Shown here in pieces: positions 34,172 through 51,462 of a stretch of DNA of 64,000 nucleotides. The notes below the pieces were generated by a model that was not told where the DNA came from, did no database searches, and saw nothing but the letters and a program-made list of their open reading frames with translations. Each line of letters starts with the position of its first letter. Position 1 is the stretch's first letter. Source of the stretch: Dictyophora rubrovolvata (lineage: Eukaryota > Basidiomycota > Agaricomycetes > Phallales > Phallaceae); assembly GCA_029959195.1 (NCBI GenBank), contig CP114120.1, positions 1,302,001 through 1,366,000 on the forward strand, read 5' to 3'. The translations under genes and the position numbers were made by a program.

Positions 34172-35406
34172 ATGATCGACGGCAGCGGTTACTATGTACT
34201 AGATATTTTTTGCATGCCTCCTCACAATCGTTTATACATTATTTTGCTTGTCGCATGTGCAAGTGTCGTTTTCAAACTCTCTACTTATCCGCAATCACCG
34301 TGTCAATGCGAAAATCAAAATAAATCAAATTCTGCTTCAAGCTATCACGAACACCTTAGCACCATACGAAGCTCAGATACCTCGCCACACTCGAAAACAC
34401 TAGGCGTGTTCGATCGCATATATGTCATAAATCTTGCTGCGCGGGATGACAGACGACGAATTATGATTGATTTAGAACGTGCCATGGATATTGAGTTTAC
34501 ATGGCACAACGCGACATTTTATGAAGAGGACGTTGTTGGGAGAATTATGGGTCGGCTGAGGAGGTGGAGAATTGACAATAAAAAAGACGAGACGGTGGGG
34601 CAAAAGAGTGAGGATCCGAATCAACCATATGTGTTTAAATGGAGTGAAGACGTGTTTGAGGAGAGAGATGCGTTGGGCGTTCGGGGAGCTGATTTATGGA
34701 GCGAGGAGGAGGAGGAAAGACTCGGACATCTGGAAGGGGAGACGACTAGTAGTAATAGTACGGCAACAGTGTTACTGGATGCGTACGGCGAAGATGGCGA
34801 AGAGTTTGGGAAGATTCCGCTGCGACTCTCTCAAGTTGCGTGTTGGCATTCACATTATAATGTCCTACGACGGATAGCCGAGGGGAACGACGAGGTCGTG
34901 CTCATCTTGGAAGATGATGTCGATATGGAGTGGGATCTGGACCACCGCCTGCGGATAATGTGGCCGTTCTTGCCTCGAGACTGGGATGTTGTCATGTTAG
35001 GTCGGTGGGAGTCTCCTCCTGAGTTTCCGCTATACCTATCATCTCACTTAATTTGCTAGGACATTGTATGAGTCACGAGTTTGGAAAACCACTTCAAGGC
35101 GCGCCGACGCTCTTTCCAGCGACGCAAAGCTTGTGCAGTCATGCGTACGTTGTCAATCGACGGTCTGCATCACGTCTAGTCCGTTATCTGCGTTCCGAGC
35201 CATTTGCCTATTCTCGTGCGTTCGACCATGCGGTGAATCATCTTTCCATGAGCGGAAGGCTTAAGGTATTCAGTGTCAATCCGCCTGTTGTCATCCAGCC
35301 GAAAGACCTTGCAAGTGATCTTGTTCATCGCGGTTTTAAACCCATCAGAGAACAGTGGTTATCAGATAGTGCGCTGGAACGGGTTGCCCTTGGAAGGGTG
35401 CAATGA
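34172..35406 (+). CDS. Glycosyltransferase family 25 membrane protein
   Basis: Two exons encode about 395 residues. The single intron (about 35000-35059) is removed to give DVVMLGHCMSHEFG. An N-terminal signal anchor (LYIILLVACASVVFKL) suggests a type II Golgi/ER protein. GT25 hallmarks are FDRIYVINLAARDDRR at the start of the catalytic domain, SQVACWHSHYNVLRRI, the acidic donor-binding motif VVLILEDDVDMEWD, and HAYVVNRRSASRLVRYL. GT25 enzymes include bacterial LPS and animal collagen galactosyltransferases; the fungal acceptor is unknown. A long charged insert (residues about 120-200) separates the first two conserved blocks. Its stop is 85 bp from the stop of the convergent phosphatase gene. 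Confidence 0.87.
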
Positions 35407-35491
35407 TAATGATAATAATATAAAAGCTGCATTGTGAATAGTAACAAGAGTACACCTATAAGTAATACAGTTTTTTTTGGGGGGGAATCAT

Positions 35492-36655
35492 TTATAAACC
35501 GTTGAAGGCGTCGAAAAGGGCTTGATATACCCATGCGGCCTGTTCATCTCTTTCGACCATCCGTTGGCGTTGTTCTCTCAGGGCATCTATCTCGTGAGCT
35601 ACGATGTCGTTCTTGAACTTTGAGGGTAGTGGACCGAATGGAGATAATGGTAAAGGGGGTGGAAAAGACGGATTGGATGCAGATCGGTGGGAAGTTAAAA
35701 GGGAATAAGCTCGAAGAACGGAAGAAAGAGCGATGAATGATCCTGTACGGCCAACTCCGGCTGAACAGTGGACCAATGGGGGAGGGCTGATGTTGGGATC
35801 TGAAGGTATAGTGGCATTGAGATGTCGGTTGTTCACCCGTTCTACGAGACGGACAAAGTTGAGGATGGATTCATTGTCAGATGGGACGCCGAAGTCTGGC
35901 CAGCCGGTATAAAGTAGATGGGTAGCCTGGAATTCTTGACCAACGGGTTGTTGCTGTTGCTGATCATACCATCTAAGGCGAAGGTCAGTCAAGATGCATC
36001 GGGCATCGGGGAGGTCTTCTTCTGATTCGACGTGGATGTGAATACTATGCAAGGATGGGTCACATCCTTGTTCTGGATGAACAATGAAATTCTCGGCTTG
36101 AGAAGAGAAGTAATTGTGGGCCCTTCTGCGGCCGTTTTCGACAGGCATTGTGAGTTGGACGATCGTGTGGACACGCTGTCGATGCGGTGACGCGCGAGTC
36201 ATGCAGAGGGTCAGAAAGGCATGGAACGTGTTTGGCAATGGTGCTTGCGCTGCAATCCAGTATTTTCCTCCAAACAGTTCGCGTACCCAATTCGCGTTGA
36301 TGTACCTTTCGTCATCGGCGTCGTCAGTGTCGCCGTTGCCAGGGAAACCGTCTGGACGAGATGGAACTTTTACCCTTGTCCGATCATACGGCTCCAAGGA
36401 TATGTAGCGATTCTTGTGCCTATGCGCGGGGAGTTGTCCGGCTGCACACGAGTAATGCGCCCTGATGTAGGCTGGAATGCCCGACGTTGATTCAGCTGAG
36501 GTGGACGTGGACGCGGACGACGATGTCGAGGTTAAGAATGAATCCTGGCCCAGTCGTGCGAGTTGTCGCTGTTGCTCGCGATAATCGAGAGTATGAAGGG
36601 TAAGTGATAAGGCTGATTTCTGGGTTGCCGACTGCAACCAAGATGGTGGAGGCAT
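35492..36655 (-). CDS. Classical protein tyrosine phosphatase
   Basis: A single-exon gene of 387 codons, unusual beside its intron-rich neighbours. It carries the full PTP set in order: HKNRYISLEPYDRTRV (KNRY), DERYINANWV, KYWIAAQAPLPNTFHAFL, TGWPDFGVP (the WPD loop with its general acid), VHCSAGVGRTGSF (catalytic Cys and P-loop Arg) and the Q-loop LREQRQRMVERDEQAAWVY. It should remove phosphate from phosphotyrosine; fungal relatives act on MAP kinases. A Ser/Thr-rich stretch (STSSSASTSTSAESTSG) and a Gln run (QQQQQ) look disordered. No targeting signal or extra domain is seen. The start is only 61 bp from the start of the divergent hydrolase gene. Confidence 0.95.
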   Translation of the reverse strand: MPPPSWLQSATQKSALSLTLHTLDYREQQRQLARLGQDSFLTSTSSSASTSTSAESTSGIPAYIRAHYSCAAGQLPAHRHKNRYISLEPYDRTRVKVPSRPDGFPGNGDTDDADDERYINANWVRELFGGKYWIAAQAPLPNTFHAFLTLCMTRASPHRQRVHTIVQLTMPVENGRRRAHNYFSSQAENFIVHPEQGCDPSLHSIHIHVESEEDLPDARCILTDLRLRWYDQQQQQPVGQEFQATHLLYTGWPDFGVPSDNESILNFVRLVERVNNRHLNATIPSDPNISPPPLVHCSAGVGRTGSFIALSSVLRAYSLLTSHRSASNPSFPPPLPLSPFGPLPSKFKNDIVAHEIDALREQRQRMVERDEQAAWVYQALFDAFNGL

Positions 36656-36716
36656 TCGACGAGTTGGCGGAGAGAGACGTTGGACAGAGAGACGCCCAAG
36701 AGTGATAGGTTACTTG
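36656..36716. promoter_or_regulatory. 61-bp divergent gap, PTP / epoxide hydrolase
   Basis: The two start codons are only 61 bp apart, so the 5' UTRs must be tiny or the promoter elements lie within the opposite coding sequence. A GACAGAGAGACG purine-rich run is the only visible feature. Confidence 0.6.
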
Positions 36717-37897
36717 ATGGCGACATTACCATTACGCCTCCCAAATGGCATTCGCTCTCGTATGATATCGACCGTGAATGGGCTGGATATGCATGTCTTG
36801 GAAGCGGGAGAGAAAGGGAAACCACTGTTGATTTTATTGCACGGTTTTCCAGAAATGTGAGTTGTCGTCGTCGGAATCAGTGCTCGCCAGAAAGTGCTGA
36901 ACGAGTTGACGGACAAAGCGCGTACTCATATCGACACATTATCCTGCCACTTGCTAATAAGCTGGATGCGTATGTCGTCGCGCCAGACTTGCGGGGCTTT
37001 GGACGGACGACGGGATGGAGCGCAGCGGACACGGCGTCGTTCAGGATGCTCAACCTCGTGACAGACGTCGTCGCCCTCGCTTACGGTCTGGGATATAACG
37101 TCGTCCATTCAATAATAGGCCATGACTTCGGGAGTCGCGTCGGTGCCTACTGTGCTCTCGTTCGGCCTGATCTCTTCAAGTCGGCCGTTATTATGAGCGC
37201 ACCCTTTCCCGGTCCACCTCGATCCAACTTGTTACCCTCATCATCTCCGGCACCGAACATATCACAGATTCTATCTGATCTACGCTCCTTGTCTCCAGCT
37301 CGTAAACACTATACCGAGTATTTTTCCGATCCTTCTCTAGTAGCCAACAGGGACATGATGAGCTCCGCACAAGGCCTTCGTTCTTTCTTTCTAGGTTACT
37401 TCCACATGAAGAGCGCGGACTGGCCTCACAACGATCCTCAGCCTCTACAAGGATGGTCTGCGCTCGAACTCGCCAAATTACCCGAATATTATGTCATGCC
37501 AGTTGACAAGTCTATGCCCGAAGTCGTCTTGCCTCATACACCTTCAGCGACCCCTCCATGGCTCACTGAAGAAGACCTAGACGTTTTTGCTGCAGAATAC
37601 GCACGGACAACTTTTCAAGGTGGTTTGAATTATTATAGCTATCGTATTATCCCTCAAGTCGAACTCTTTCCATTTATGAACAAGCTAGTTGATGTCCCGG
37701 TTGTTTTCGTTCGCGGAGACAAGGACTGGGGCATGCATCAATCACCAGGAGAACTGGATCGTATGAGACTCGCATGTCCAATGATGGCTCCTGGGAACGA
37801 AGGATGTAGAGTCGTAGAAGGGGCCGGTCATTGGGTTCAGCAGGAAAAACCAGAAGAAGTTGTTGACATTATCTCTAATTTTTTGAACGGAATATAA
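36717..37897 (+). CDS. Alpha/beta hydrolase, epoxide-hydrolase-like
   Basis: Two exons encode 372 residues. Exon 1 starts at MATLPLRLPNGIRSRM and contains GLDMHVLEAGEKGKPLLILL followed by the oxyanion-hole motif HGFPE. The 62-nt intron (36857-36918) joins it to IAYSYRHIILPLANKLDAYV. Then come VAPDLRGFGRTTGW, the nucleophile elbow IIGHDFGSRVGAYCALVRPD with the Asp nucleophile, and the C-terminal VVFVRGDKDWGMHQ and GAGHWVQQEKPEEV, which hold the second acidic residue and catalytic His. Cap tyrosines may lie in LNYYSYRIIP. Lacking a signal peptide, it is probably intracellular, unlike the hydrolase at 9.3 kb. Substrate is unknown; haloalkane dehalogenase-like activity cannot be excluded from motifs alone. 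Confidence 0.9.
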
Positions 37898-37973: not shown

Positions 37974-38053
37974 GCCTTGCTAGCTCAATCGGTAGAGCGT
38001 GAGACTCTTAACTAGATATCTCAAGGTTGCGGGTTCGACCCCCGCGTGGGGCT
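37974..38053 (+). tRNA. tRNA-Lys (anticodon CTT) with a 7-nt intron
   Basis: The cloverleaf closes well. The acceptor GCCTTGC pairs with GTGGGGC through G-T wobbles. The D-arm is TAGCTCAATCGGTAGAGC. The anticodon stem TGAGA/TCTCA holds the loop CTCTTAA with anticodon CTT, and the T-arm is GCGGGTTCGACCCCCGC. Removing seven nucleotides after the base next to the anticodon gives a 73-nt tRNA, the canonical intron position. Sequence agrees closely with fungal lysine tRNAs. Confidence 0.95.
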
Positions 38054-45689: not shown

Positions 45690-45990
45690 GGGGAAGTTTA
45701 CCATAGTCTACCGCTGTTTCGGTTGGCCCGACTAGTTGGAAGGCGCCATCGAAAGCTGGGATTTTGTCATTTGGAAACAAGCGAGACTTAATCTTAGCTC
45801 GAGGCAGGGGTTTCCGACAAACGCGCCCTTCCCCACTATTGACAACTGAGACCCAAAGCAACGGTAGAGATAATTATCGTTGCGGCTCCCATCTTCTCGC
45901 GTGGCAAGCAAATCAATCTCTCAGTTTATCCCAATTCTACTTTTTCTTTCTTCCTGTCGATAAACTTCAGATGGTTGAGTGAAGGTCACC
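45690..45990 (+). promoter_or_regulatory. Duplicated upstream block, copy 1 (first CDF gene)
   Basis: It shares order and sequence with 48770-49080: CTACCGCTGTTTCGG, GGATTTTGTCATTTGGAA, ACAAACGC, CCATTATT-like, GACCCAA and a 25-bp identical block at 45891-45915 (core CGCGTGGCAAGCAAATC). The identical block lies about 409 bp before the start codon. The order is kept while other parts have diverged, so the duplication included the promoter. Confidence 0.75.
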
Positions 45991-46299: not shown

Positions 46300-48285
46300 A
46301 TGACTGCTAGAGACAACTCTAACCCTCGGACTACCTATCTTTCGCCTACCCAGACTCAGGCTCCCAATGATGTACGTGGCCCAATTGCATTTTTTCACCG
46401 CTGCCAGCACCTACGGTTGCCTCTATACAGACATATAGTGTACCTGATGACTCTTCAACATTGACACATATTCCGACCGCCCTCGTCGCAAAGTCTATCA
46501 CGCATTTGCCTTGTGATTCCAAATCTCAAGCGATTGGGGGATGCGACCCTGAACATTCCCCCAAACCAAGATTTGAGGATCCGTACGGGTTTCAAGAAGG
46601 TGTAAAGTCTCCCGAAGAATTGCTTGTCCTTCGGAAATCAGGAAGGAAGGGCAAAAAAGTTGAACTCTATCATCGAAGACAAAATGACGTTCGTTTCCTG
46701 TTGATCCTCTTTCTTTCTTTCGTGTTTACAAGCATTGTAGTTGATAGAATATCTTTTAAAACCAATGGAGACTCATACATCTGAAGCGCAGCAAGAAGAG
46801 GAAGCCGCGCGTCTTTCTGTAAGCGAAATTTTCTCGTGCAATGATGCCATGTTCCACCTGACCTGTTTAGGTCAAAATTGCTGTTTGGGCGAGTCTGATT
46901 GCCAATTTTGCTTTGTGTGTGATTCAACGTGAGTATTCCAATTGATGTCCTGTCTAGAGATGTTACCCTCACATGCTACAATCCAGTATACGCGGCTATA
47001 ACATCGGTTTCAATCTCCCTGATTACCACGGGGATAGACTCTGTATTCGACTTAGGCAGTAATATCATGCTCTTCTGGCTGCATCGGAAAGCCAACAATT
47101 TGGATCCTGCCAATTGGCCTATAGGAGGCGCACGGTTGGAGACCATAGGAAATATAGTTTATGGTGAGTCTTTGAAGTCTCAAACTATAAGAGATGGAAA
47201 TAATATTTTTGTAGGTTCTTTGTGAGCTGTCAATCTGTTTTCTCATGAGACTTAAAACCTAAGCACGATTGCGTCTAGGATGAGCTCTGTTAATCTAGTT
47301 GTCACAGTTGAATCTGTCCAAACAATTATTGATCACAAAGGAGATGACACAAACAAGCTCCATATTCCTTCTTTGATTGCTGTTGCTGCTGCTTTAGGTA
47401 TGGTTCATTTGAATCATTTATCTTAACTTGACTCATTCGTTATATTCAGGTGTTAAATTTTTACTGTTCTTGTACTGCTTTGGTATTCGGCGTTCTTCCA
47501 GTCAAGTACAAATTCTTTGGGAAGACCATCGAAATGATTTATGGATTAATACATTTGGTACAGAGTTTATGCTTACTTTGATTTTTACGTTCTCTAAACA
47601 CTTCCGTCGCAGCACTATTGATGTCACTTGGTGGAAGCAAATTGAAGTGGTGTATGTTTTTTGCTAACCTTTTTGAAATCTCCTTGATGATTTCCTATTT
47701 TTTTAGATTTGGATCCTTTGGGAGGGATGGTTGTATGTCTAGTCGTGTTTCTCGATTGACAGGGCTTTTAAAGCAAGCACTAGATTTCATCAGGCGTAAT
47801 TATTTCCTGGGCGCGAACAATCCGCTCGCAATTCGAGCTCCTTGCCGGAAAATCAGCACCTTACGAGTTCATTCAGCTTATTGCTTACAAGGCCACGACA
47901 TTTAGTGAAGAAATCGAGAAGCTGGATACTGTACGGGCCTATCATGTATGTCTTTGTCATTTTCTGCACACCGTGACTCACGAACTGTTGCATTTGTAGA
48001 GCGGACCTGTACGTTCAAACCACATTACTTTAATTACTTTGTTCGCTTATCTTTCTACAGGAATATTACGTGGAAGTGGATGTGGTCATGCCGGCTGATA
48101 CAGAACTGTGGAAAGCACACGATGTGGCGCAGCGACTGCAGGATCAAATTGAATTGTTGCCAAATGTAGAGCGAGCATTTGTACATGTTGATCACGAAAC
48201 TCAACATCGCCCGGTGAGCTTTTTGGCTTGTTTGTTCGTATAGCAGTGGCTTGACATATTTTGATAGGAACATCGTAAATCGTAG
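46300..48285 (+). CDS. Cation diffusion facilitator metal transporter, tandem copy 1
   Basis: A protein of about 430 residues cut into about twelve exons. A hydrophilic N-terminus (MTARDNSNPRTTYLSPT) leads to FEDPYGFQEGVKSPEELLVL and EYLLKPMETHTSEAQQ. The membrane part has VKIAVWASLIANFALCVIQ (TM1), ITTGIDSVFDLGSNIMLFW (TM2 with DxxxD), RLETIGNIVYG, then TM3-TM4, and EDHRNDLWINTF (TM5 with DHRND, again DxxxD). The cytoplasmic CDF tail follows (EVDVVMPADTELWKAHD...FVHVDHETQHRP). Paired DxxxD sites instead of HxxxD point to the Mn-type CDF branch, exporting Mn2+ from cytosol by proton exchange; that is inferred. Exons include a 7-nt one (47215-47221), a 26-nt one (47707-47732) and a 9-nt one (48000-48008). 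All joins are in frame, so the gene looks intact. Copy 2 lies immediately downstream. Confidence 0.87.
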
Positions 48286-48769
48286 AGGTACCTAACAATG
48301 ACCCACGATTGTTGGTACTATTTTTTTACTGAAACCTTTGAATGTCGAAAGATGAACTCTTCCTCGCATAAACATACTTTACGACTCTTTATCTTTTATT
48401 CTTTTAACTCGATATGGTATCGATATTCAAACTCACGATGTCATACAGCTACATTCGCAATTGGAATGTCAGGTCTGACTTTCAAGCAAGTGACTCCATT
48501 TTGGCGTAAATATATCTAGAGTCCCATGTTATTCAACAAAATAGTAGTCGAGTTCCTATCTAGTTACATATTCAATGTTCTCCCCATCACTTTGGGTTCT
48601 TTATCGACTATTGAATTTTTTTTGCTAAAAGCCATTATGTAATTTGACTGATATGAATTCAATTAATCAAAATGCGGCCTTTCAAATCGCGAGTATTAAG
48701 CAGCTGAAGAATGGCGTCAGTGTATCTACAATGGCAGACTCGACCCCAAAAGCCTCTGCTGACTAAGAC
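48286..48769. other. Spacer between the two CDF copies
   Basis: AT-rich 3' flank of the first copy without any gene. The duplicated promoter block of the second copy begins at about 48770. Confidence 0.5.
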
Positions 48770-49080
48770 TCGAGATGAAGGCCTACCACTGTTTCGGATG
48801 TCCCGAGCAATTGGGAAGGGGCGATCTGACTAGTGACTGGGGCTGGATTTTGTTATTTGGAAGGAGACGGAGTCGAGACAGCTATTACCGCCACAAACGC
48901 CGGATTTCCCATTATTAGACTCTGGGACCCAAGGGTACGGTAAAGACACTGATCGGTGCAGATTAACTATGGTTCCGCGTCAGGAATATCTTCTCGCGTG
49001 GCAAGCAAATCAGGATTGTGCGAATTTAAATGCAGCTGCTCACTGTCTCCCATTTCTACTTTCTTTTCTCTTCTTTGCAT
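48770..49080 (+). promoter_or_regulatory. Duplicated upstream block, copy 2 (second CDF gene)
   Basis: Counterpart of 45690-45990. The 25-bp identical block is at 48988-49012, about 420 bp before the start codon, nearly the same distance as in copy 1 (409 bp). Surrounding sequence has diverged by substitutions and small indels. Confidence 0.75.
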
Positions 49081-49407
49081 GGGCAAAGGCTGCGTGGGCG
49101 TGTCACTATCTCTATCTGTTTTTCAAACACCGCCGTATTCCTTCCGTGCTTTCTTACTCGTTCCACCATCACGTCTTATCGCACGAATTGACGAACATAC
49201 AGTCCCACTACTTCACTTTCCGATCCTCCTGGCGAACATTCTTTCTTACCCGTAACCTATAATCATTCCATCCCATCCGTGTCGATTTTGGGACTTCCGG
49301 CCCTTTCTGCTGGTAGAACTCCACTACTCTTTATAGGTCCCTCCAACCCTTTCCCCGATCTATCCCGCCTTTGGACTTACACTTACCACCTGTTCTCTCT
49401 ATTAAAA

Positions 49408-51462
49408 ATGATCGTCAAGGACGACTTCGGCCTGAATACCCATACCTTACCAGCTCAGGTTTCCAGCGATGATGTACGTCAGCTGATTACATCACTCCAC
49501 CTGAGGTGTCACGCTCATGTTCCCCCCTATCACGTTTACAGCGGACATATATACCTCCTGATGATTCTCAAACGACAACTCAAACCCCGACAGCTTCCAA
49601 GTCTGTCACTGATCTTCCTGCCAGCTCCAATTCCGAGACCGCTAACGAGTACGACCTCGAAAAATCCTCCAAACAAGGATTTGACGATCCATACATGTTC
49701 CAAAAGGGTATAAAATCTCCTGAAGAATTGCTTGTTCTTCGCAAATCAGGAAAAGTGGGCAAGAGAGTCGAACGCTATCACCGAAAACAAAATGAGGTTT
49801 GTTTCTTAGCGTGTTCCTGTCCCAACTGCTTCTCTTCCGTGCTCACAAGAGTTTCAGCTGATAGAGTATCTTCTCAAACCAATGGAAACTCATACATCTG
49901 AAGCTCAGCAGCAAGAGGAAGCCGCGCGTCTTTCCGTAAGCGAAATCTCGTCATTTAAATCGCGCCATGTTCTCACACCTGATCAAACCTGTCCCGTTTA
50001 GGTCAAAGTTGCTGTATGGGCCAGTCTCATTGCGAATTTCGCCTTGTGTGTCATTCAGTGTAAGTATCGCTATTATTATACTTTCCGGATCATTTGTCCG
50101 AATCGCCCCAGTATACGCTGCTATTTCGTCACTATCACTCTCCCTCCTTGCCACTGGCATAGACTCCATTTTTGATTTGGGCAGTAATGTCATGCTCTTT
50201 TGGCTACATAAGAAGGCCAAGAGTTTGGACGTCAATAAATGGCCTGTGGGAGGCGCACGATTGGAAACCATAGGAAATATCGTTTATGGTAAGTTTTAGC
50301 GCTTTTAATCATTTGAACTCGAAGAAGATAGCAATATCACGATAGGTTCTTTGTGAGTTACCAATCTGTTTTTTATGCTCGAGCTTGGACCTAAGCACTG
50401 TCGCATTTAGAATGAGTTCTGTCAATTTGGTTGTTACAGTGGAATCTGTCCGGACAATCATTGATCACAGAGGATCAGACACAAATGCACTTCATATTCC
50501 TTCCCTTATTGCCGTTGCAGCCGCTTTAGGTATAATCATTTCTTACTATTGACTTAGTTCGATTGATTTGTCTTATTCAGGTGTCAAATTCTTATTGTTC
50601 TTGTACTGTTTTGGTATTCGACGTTCTTCAAGTCAAGTCCAGATCTTGTGGGAAGACCATAGAAATGATCTATGGATTAATACGTTTGGTAAATGGCTTA
50701 TATTTACTTTCTCGTTTTTGGCATTGCTTACATCTTTTTAACCTTTACACAACAGGAATATTGATGTCAGCCGGAGGAAGTCGTCTAAAGTGGTGTATGT
50801 ATCAAGATATCCTTTTTCTTCCAGGTTTCTCAATCATTTCGTTTTTTTTTAGATTTGGACCCAATGGGGGGGATGATTGTATGTTCAGATATGTTGTAAA
50901 TTTTTGACCGGTTTGAACGAAGCGTTTTCATTGCCAGATTGCTTTAGGCGTAATTATTGCGTGGGCGAGAACGATCCATTCACAATTTGAGCTTCTCGCG
51001 GGGAAATCAGCCCCTCATGAATTCCTGCAACTCATTGTTTACAAGGCTATGACGTTCAGCGACGAAATAGAAAAATTAGATACCGTGCGAGCCTATCACG
51101 TATGTTTCTTTTCCCTGTTATGTATGACTTGCGAACCGGCATTTAATTATTTCTATAACGCAGAGCGGACCGGTGCGCGAGTTTACAATTTTTTTCTGAA
51201 AAACCTCGACTTAGACTTTGCTTTCCTATATAGGATTATTTTGTAGAAGTGGATGTCGTCATGCCGGCTAATACGGAATTGTGGAGAGCCCACGATTTAG
51301 CGCAGCGGTTGCAAGATAAGATTGAGTTATTACCAAATGTAGAGCGGGCATTCGTGCATGTCGATCATGAAACCGAACACCGTCCAGTGAGTGGCTCGTG
51401 GATCCTCCCCAGAGTATGCCGATATATTGAATCATAATCAGGAGCATCGTAAATATGTGTAA
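49408..51462 (+). CDS. Cation diffusion facilitator metal transporter, tandem copy 2
   Basis: A close paralogue of copy 1 with the same exon pattern, about 430 residues. It starts MIVKDDFGLNTHTLPAQ; this ATG (49408) is preferred to the one at 49279 because it aligns with the copy-1 start and first donor. Shared blocks include PEELLVLRKSGK, EYLLKPMETHTSEAQQQEE, VKVAVWASLIANFALCVIQ, LATGIDSIFDLGSNVMLFW, EDHRNDLWINTF and EVDVVMPANTELWRAHD. The microexons are kept: 7 nt (50346-50352), 26 nt (50853-50878) and 9 nt (51164-51172). Both DxxxD metal sites are intact, so both copies should transport. The divergence is mostly in the N-terminus, introns and synonymous sites, which suggests an older duplication under purifying selection. 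It ends EHRKYV. Confidence 0.87.

What the first reader, a model, noticed from the sequence alone, without database searches (positions are those of the whole stretch)
46300..51462. Tandem CDF transporters sharing conserved 7-nt and 9-nt microexons
Both copies need a 7-nt exon (GTTCTTT at 47215-47221 and 50346-50352) to join VYG to SLMSSVNLV across two introns. Both also need a 9-nt exon coding Ser-Gly-Pro (48000-48008 and 51164-51172), plus a 26-nt exon (47707-47732 and 50853-50878). The exons are kept while flanking introns have diverged, so the splicing pattern is under selection. Skipping the 7-nt exon would shift the frame, while skipping the 9-nt exon would only delete SGP in front of the cytoplasmic domain. 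This is a possible splice switch of metal transport. Exons under 10 nt are known in fungi but are usually missed by annotation.
Basis: partly seen in the sequence, partly recalled or inferred. Interest (0 to 1): 0.75.

Follow-up and report, generated by a model that had tools for sequence, protein, structure and literature searches.

The report
Constitutive microexons in duplicated fungal metal transporters
Two neighbouring copies of a fungal metal-transporter gene each carry exons of 7 and 9 letters that are very probably real, but these encode ordinary core parts of the protein, so they look like a routine annotation trap rather than a splicing switch.

Summary
Two tandem genes (46300-48285, 49408-51462) assemble into complete 14-exon frames of 427 and 425 aa, all 26 introns GT-AG and 51-68 nt, with 7-, 26- and 9-nt exons at the stated coordinates. 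They are cation diffusion facilitators with DxxxD in TMD II and V, the published pattern of manganese CDFs. The 7-nt exon lies in TM3; skipping it gives a stop at the next codon in both copies. The 9-nt exon encodes Ser-Gly-Pro inside the dimerisation domain. FieF aligns without gaps over both. Of 15 prokaryotic CDFs aligned, 15 have residues at the first triplet, 14 at the second, 12 the Gly. So both are best read as constitutive core exons, spliced by intron definition. The splice-switch idea has no positive support: microexon-flanking introns are not better conserved between the copies than the others (18.4 versus 18.6, p = 0.95). One lead remains: intron 6, just after the 7-nt exon, is the best conserved of 13. 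Fungal microexons down to 1 nt are in print, so this is a new member of a known kind. No RNA was examined.

The parts
46300..48285 (+). CDF transporter gene, copy A: 14 exons, 427 aa
   Evidence: spliced frame open, 13 GT-AG introns of 51-59 nt; PF01545 and PF16916
49408..51462 (+). CDF transporter gene, copy B: 14 exons, 425 aa
   Evidence: spliced frame open, 13 GT-AG introns of 51-68 nt; PF01545, PF16916, TIGR01297
47215..47221 (+). copy A exon 6, 7 nt (GTTCTTT): rest of Gly215, Ser216, two letters of Leu217, in TM3
50346..50352 (+). copy B exon 6, 7 nt (GTTCTTT), same phases
48000..48008 (+). copy A exon 12, 9 nt: Ser-Gly-Pro 369-371, inside the dimerisation domain
51164..51172 (+). copy B exon 12, 9 nt: Ser-Gly-Pro 366-368
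47707..47732 (+). copy A exon 10, 26 nt (rest of Tyr, then LDPLGGMV, TM6 region)
50853..50878 (+). copy B exon 10, 26 nt (rest of Tyr, then LDPMGGMI)
47222..47278 (+). copy A intron 6, best conserved intron between the copies
   Evidence: interior alignment score 39.5; 0 of 156 non-homologous pairs reach it
50353..50410 (+). copy B intron 6
47231..47241 (+). CAATCTGTTTT kept in intron 6, from intron base 10 (possible intronic splicing element, untested)
50362..50372 (+). CAATCTGTTTT kept in intron 6 of copy B

Best explanation
An old tandem duplicate pair of fungal CDF transporters, most likely of the manganese (MTP8-like) group, in an intron-dense gene where several introns lie very close together. 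The 7-, 9- and 26-nt pieces between them are constitutive exons encoding core protein: TM3, the start of the cytoplasmic dimerisation domain, and the TM6 region. Splicing works by pairing the two ends of each short intron (intron definition), so exon length hardly matters; the two introns flanking a microexon are removed one after the other, not across the exon. Shown here: gene structure, frame, family, conservation of the encoded segments, and splice scores at the 7- and 9-nt exons in the range of the other introns. Inferred: inclusion in most mRNA, intron definition, order of removal, Mn2+ as the substrate.
For: Same 14-exon phase pattern in both copies, open frames. omega 0.115 overall and 0.071 in the core at dS 1.26: both copies kept as proteins. 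Skipping exon 6 gives a stop at the codon after the junction codon in both copies. GSL and SGP align without gaps to E. coli FieF, where the second triplet is SGP too. Of 15 prokaryotic CDFs aligned, 15 have residues at all three GSL columns, 14 at all three SGP columns, 12 the Gly. In Pfam the single-intron rival for exon 6 loses about 10 bits of Cation_efflux and SGP removal loses 4-5 bits of ZT_dimer. Flanking introns of the three microexons are 51-64 nt. A C. elegans study reports that reducing flanking intron size relieves microexons of their dependence on PRP-40 (PMC8378409, abstract and section list seen).
Against: No transcript evidence. No fungal orthologue could be read, so the exon structure is seen in these two paralogues only. 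Of the 15 prokaryotic CDFs, Marinovum and Antarctobacter have no Gly there and one residue more, and the Pacificitalea frame ends before that place, so the Gly is not universal. In two weak PDB matches (3j1z, E 0.2; 8f6h, E 0.25) HMMER puts a one-residue insertion at GSL, balanced by a gap some 20 residues on, and their alignments stop before SGP. The SGP-less protein still passes Pfam's ZT_dimer cut-off (27.8 and 28.2 against 26.7 bits). Intron 6 is the best conserved of 13 introns, which could mean special control of the 7-nt exon.
Confidence: 0.86

Rival explanations
1. Splice switch: the 9-nt exon is alternatively skipped, giving a transporter without SGP and with altered dimerisation or metal sensing.
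For: Skipping keeps the frame in both copies; the shortened protein still passes the Pfam cut-off; the Gly is absent in 2 prokaryotic CDFs that do have residues there. A microexon switch is published for Trichoderma Xlr2 (PMC11121469; abstract start and passages seen).
Against: Residues are present at the triplet in 14 of 15 prokaryotic CDFs, Gly in 12, and FieF has SGP. Leave-one-out splice scores beside it are ordinary to strong (donors 8.0 and 5.3 for intron 12; acceptors 5.6 and 3.3 for intron 11). Its flanking introns are poorly conserved between the copies (9 and 47 of 156 non-homologous pairs score as high).
Confidence: 0.05
2. Unproductive splicing: regulated skipping of the 7-nt exon makes a premature stop and lowers transporter level by mRNA decay, helped by the conserved element in intron 6.
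For: Immediate stop in both copies on skipping; intron 6 is the best conserved intron, with an 11-nt word kept.
Against: The stop follows from the Met-Ser codons at the start of exon 7 read in the shifted frame, so it is expected without selection. Introns 2, 3 and 9, which do not border the 7-nt exon, also exceed all 156 non-homologous pairs, and intron 5 on its other side does not (20 of 156 score as high). CAATCTGTTTT with up to 1 mismatch occurs 5 times in the window against 2.8 expected, 2 of the 5 being the exact ones in intron 6.
Confidence: 0.06
3. No 7-nt exon: one intron of 111 (A) or 118 (B) nt from a donor 4 bases downstream, giving VYG(E/K)MSSVNLV, one residue shorter.
For: In frame and open in both copies.
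Against: Donor scores -2.3 and -3.9 against 1.8-8.8 for the 26 used; longer than any of the 26 introns (maximum 68); about 10 bits lost in Cation_efflux; leaves the 15-nt identical word unexplained. A GT at this place comes with every GTRAGT donor.
Confidence: 0.02

Closest known systems
Microexons of Phanerochaete chrysosporium P450 genes (PMC1184071; passages seen)
   Same: basidiomycete genes with small introns and exons down to 6 bp; tandem gene clusters
   Different: different gene family; those authors proposed alternative splicing because of the microexons, with splice variants observed for CYP63
Single-nucleotide exon of Fusarium CYP621A (PMC12940212; part 1 of 3 of the text read)
   Same: same argument: phase mismatch, intron of twice normal length, conserved AG-exon-GT, length marker from an intronless relative
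   Different: Fusarium P450; supported there by RNA reads from two species
Xlr2 microexon switch of Trichoderma virens (PMC11121469; abstract start and passages seen)
   Same: fungal microexon
   Different: there inclusion depends on glucose and changes a DNA-binding domain; no such evidence here
Mn-CDF (MTP8-like) group, e.g. PiMnT1 of Paxillus involutus and AtMTP11 (PMC1868760; passages seen)
   Same: CDF domain, D in TMD II and DxxxD in TMD V
   Different: substrate and tree position of these copies not tested
E. coli FieF/YiiP (PDB 2qfi, 3h90)
   Same: same family; SGP triplet at the same place; gapless over both microexons
   Different: FieF has HxxxD in TMD V, here DxxxD; the match begins at residue 130 of copy B and residue 6 of the FieF chain, so FieF lacks the long N-terminal part

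Membership tests
CDF superfamily | Cation_efflux and dimerisation domains above curated cut-offs | tested here: met
   PF01545 75 bits (cut-off 26.6), PF16916 32-33 bits (26.7) in both copies; TIGR01297 99.7 bits (82.35) for copy B, the only copy scanned there
CDF superfamily | six transmembrane helices | tested here: inconclusive
   simple hydropathy marks segments around TM1-TM4 and, in B, TM6, but not all six; FieF aligns from TM1 into the dimerisation domain
Mn-CDF (MTP8-like) group | DxxxD in TMD V instead of HxxxD, and D in TMD II (PMC1868760) | tested here: met
   DSVFD/DSIFD and DHRND, in register with FieF's metal-binding DxxxD and HxxxD
Mn-CDF (MTP8-like) group | clusters with MTP8-like fungal and plant sequences | not tested
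   no fungal or plant sequences at hand; NCBIfam bacterial MntE only 34.8 bits against a cut-off of 500
Mn-CDF (MTP8-like) group | transports Mn2+ | not testable with these tools
   needs an assay
FieF (equivalog) | NCBIfam equivalog cut-off; H in TMD V | tested here: not met
   51.5 bits against 420; D in place of H
Fungal microexons | internal exon under about 30 nt between GT-AG introns, needed for the frame or the protein | tested here: met
Fungal microexons | junction reads in cDNA | not testable with these tools
   no reads at hand
Regulated microexon switch | condition-dependent inclusion | not testable with these tools
   no reads at hand
Regulated microexon switch | flanking introns more conserved than other introns of the gene | tested here: not met
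   group means 18.4 versus 18.6, p = 0.95; yet one of them, intron 6, is the highest of 13

The most novel reading that the evidence does not exclude
Inclusion of the 7-nt exon is helped by a conserved element in intron 6 and tuned by metal level, so that skipping silences both transporter copies through an immediate stop, or skipping of the 9-nt exon makes a second transporter form. This would be a splicing control of metal export shared by tandem paralogues.
Probability: 0.08. Interest if true: 0.6.

Novelty: new member of a known kind. Interest (0 to 1): 0.25.

Why it matters
Two microexons under 10 nt plus one of 26 nt, kept in two paralogues, make a clean test case for annotation software: a model that misses exon 6 truncates the transporter in TM3, and one that misses exon 12 silently removes three residues of the dimerisation domain. 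They are also natural substrates for asking how a spliceosome handles exons too short for factors to sit on. They do not by themselves suggest new biology of metal transport.

Tried and rejected
Rejected: single-intron models across each microexon. They shorten or lengthen the protein, replace conserved residues or keep intron sequence in it, or use poor splice sites; the best of them is given as a rival. Rejected: 'letters conserved, so splicing selected'; the conservation is what protein constraint gives. Rejected: local gene conversion as the cause of intron 6 conservation; four-fold sites in the adjoining exons 5 and 7 are 13 of 21 and 11 of 19 identical against 76 of 146 overall.

Led nowhere: two scans of genome contigs and three of viral contigs matched peptide patterns but confirmed no relative. 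tblastn of copy B on the plasmid collection found one record at E 1e-5, used as a stepping stone to more CDFs. Passages on microexons in the Rhizoctonia and Cryptococcus genome papers (PMC4014442, PMC3990503) concern read-mapper settings only. A search of the held papers for 'microexon' with 'cation diffusion facilitator' gave 0 papers; CDF with alternative splicing, fungus and manganese gave 2, neither about this by title and start of abstract.

How the prokaryotic CDFs were picked: one search listed 60 of 865 records. At first I fetched 10, for spread of taxa, away from clinical isolates; as it turned out each of these matched over 92% or more of the query. With Terribacillus they gave 11 of 11 with residues at both triplets and Gly in 11 of 11. 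The other four were aligned with the rest: of 15, residues at GSL in 15, at SGP in 14, Gly in 12. The statement that the Gly is invariant was therefore dropped, and I moved the confidence in the best explanation from 0.88 to 0.86, the 9-nt switch from 0.04 to 0.05 and the novel case from 0.07 to 0.08.

Full report
What is there. The region 46300-51462 holds two head-to-tail genes on the + strand. Joining exons by hand gives two complete frames of 427 and 425 aa. Both have 14 exons with the same phases; exons 3-13 have equal lengths in the two copies, while exons 1, 2 and 14 differ slightly. All 26 introns are GT-AG and 51-68 nt. The proteins are 78% identical.

Is it more than chance? Without the microexons the gaps would be introns of 115-143 nt, while the 26 modelled introns average 57 nt with a maximum of 68. 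In each gap the assigned 7- or 9-nt exon is the only candidate of the right phase in which both splice sites reach the weakest scores in use. The 7-nt exon lies in a 15-nt word identical in both copies, the 26-nt exon in a 16-nt word, the 9-nt exon in a 10-nt word. The longest word shared by any of 156 non-homologous intron pairs is 9 nt, though those sequences are about half as long as the gaps. A phase-correct candidate above the weakest used scores appears in 3.3-3.7% of 20,000 random 115-nt segments, and in 0.055% at median scores. The splice scoring comes from these same introns, so it is not independent evidence. Against: the acceptor after the 26-nt exon in copy A has the lowest leave-one-out score of the 26 (2.2).

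What the genes are. Both proteins match Pfam Cation_efflux and ZT_dimer above cut-off. Copy B matches the NCBIfam CDF superfamily model over its cut-off and falls far below the equivalog cut-offs of FieF and MntE. The nearest solved structure by sequence is E. coli FieF. TMD II has DSVFD/DSIFD and TMD V has DHRND, in register with FieF's metal-binding residues. Montanini et al. 2007 (PMC1868760, passages seen; author and year partly recalled) give DxxxD in TMD V as the mark of the Mn-CDF group, in which they place the fungal PiMnT1 of Paxillus involutus. So Mn2+ is the likeliest substrate, by motif only.

What the microexons encode. The 7-nt exon supplies the rest of Gly215, Ser216 and two letters of Leu217 in a hydrophobic stretch at TM3. 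The 9-nt exon supplies Ser369-Gly370-Pro371 inside the ZT_dimer match (356-416). Both align without gaps to FieF, which has SGP too, and to a Terribacillus CDF. Of 15 prokaryotic CDFs aligned with the two proteins, 15 have residues at all three columns of the first triplet and 14 at the second; 12 have Gly in the middle of the second. The three without are Marinovum and Antarctobacter, which have other residues and one more of them, and Pacificitalea, whose frame ends before this place. In two weak PDB matches (E 0.2 and 0.25) an insertion of one residue is placed at GSL and balanced further on. Intronless relatives thus serve as length markers: the pieces belong to the protein. Skipping exon 6 ends the frame at the codon after the junction codon in both copies; skipping exon 12 keeps the frame. 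The SGP-less protein loses 4-5 bits of ZT_dimer but stays just above the cut-off, so Pfam alone does not rule it out.

Selection. dS is 1.26 and omega 0.115 overall, 0.071 in the core, so the duplication is old and both copies are kept. Given that, the identity of the microexons (7 of 7 and 8 of 9) is ordinary: 18% of 7-nt core windows are fully identical and 45% of 9-nt windows have at most one change. If microexons were under special splicing control one would expect better conserved introns around them. As a group they are not: mean score 18.4 for the six introns beside the 7-, 9- and 26-nt exons against 18.6 for the other seven, p = 0.95; for the four beside the 7- and 9-nt exons alone 19.0 against 18.3, p = 0.83. 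Intron 6 is the single best conserved of 13, with CAATCTGTTTT kept from intron base 10 and CCTAAGCAC near its end. Introns 2, 3 and 9 also exceed all non-homologous pairs, so this is a lead and not a finding. Four-fold sites in the adjoining exons are about as alike as elsewhere, which speaks against recent gene conversion there.

How it most likely works. The introns are short, and short introns are thought to be recognised by pairing their own two ends, a mode in which efficiency does not depend on exon length (review PMC8624252, passages seen). In C. elegans, reducing the flanking introns frees microexons from their need for the U1 factor PRP-40 (PMC8378409, abstract). So a 7-nt exon between introns of 51-58 nt may need no special machinery: one intron is removed, then the next. 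This is inference; no RNA was examined.

Comparison and novelty. Exons of 6 bp in Phanerochaete P450 genes (PMC1184071) and of 1 nt in Fusarium CYP621A, with read support (PMC12940212), are in print; the latter uses the same reasoning as here. A regulated fungal microexon is in print for Trichoderma (PMC11121469). In the held library no paper has both 'microexon' and 'cation diffusion facilitator'. This is a new member of a known kind, of modest interest.

Limits. Start codons were chosen by eye. That intron density of this kind suggests a basidiomycete is recalled knowledge, with only a below-cut-off hit to a fungal protein-kinase model elsewhere in the window in its favour (19.7 bits against 24.1).

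Noticed in passing
45891-45915 and 48988-49012: A 25-nt word (ATCTTCTCGCGTGGCAAGCAAATCA) is identical upstream of both copies, 385 and 396 nt before their start codons, at the end of about 200 nt of partly diverged promoter similarity; 0 found in 100 shuffles even with 3 mismatches. At dS 1.26 this looks like a constrained regulatory site.
   Followed up: partly
47222-47278 and 50353-50410: Intron 6 is the best conserved intron between the copies, with an 11-nt word kept shortly after the donor.
   Followed up: partly
47213-47221 and 50344-50352: The 7-nt exon starts with GT after the acceptor AG, so joining it to exon 5 recreates a weak possible donor (GTTCTT, score -0.6), as in recursive splicing exons.
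   Followed up: no
37974-38053: A tRNA gene, 52.7 bits in Rfam, for which ARAGORN did not name the amino acid, perhaps because it holds an intron.
   Followed up: no
34172-37897: Neighbours with Pfam matches: glycosyltransferase family 25 (34172-35059 +), protein-tyrosine phosphatase (35492-36655 -), alpha/beta hydrolase (36680-37897 +).
   Followed up: no
L013 454-1307: The Halobacillus plasmid CDF gene is split into a transporter part and a dimerisation part in two frames.
   Followed up: no
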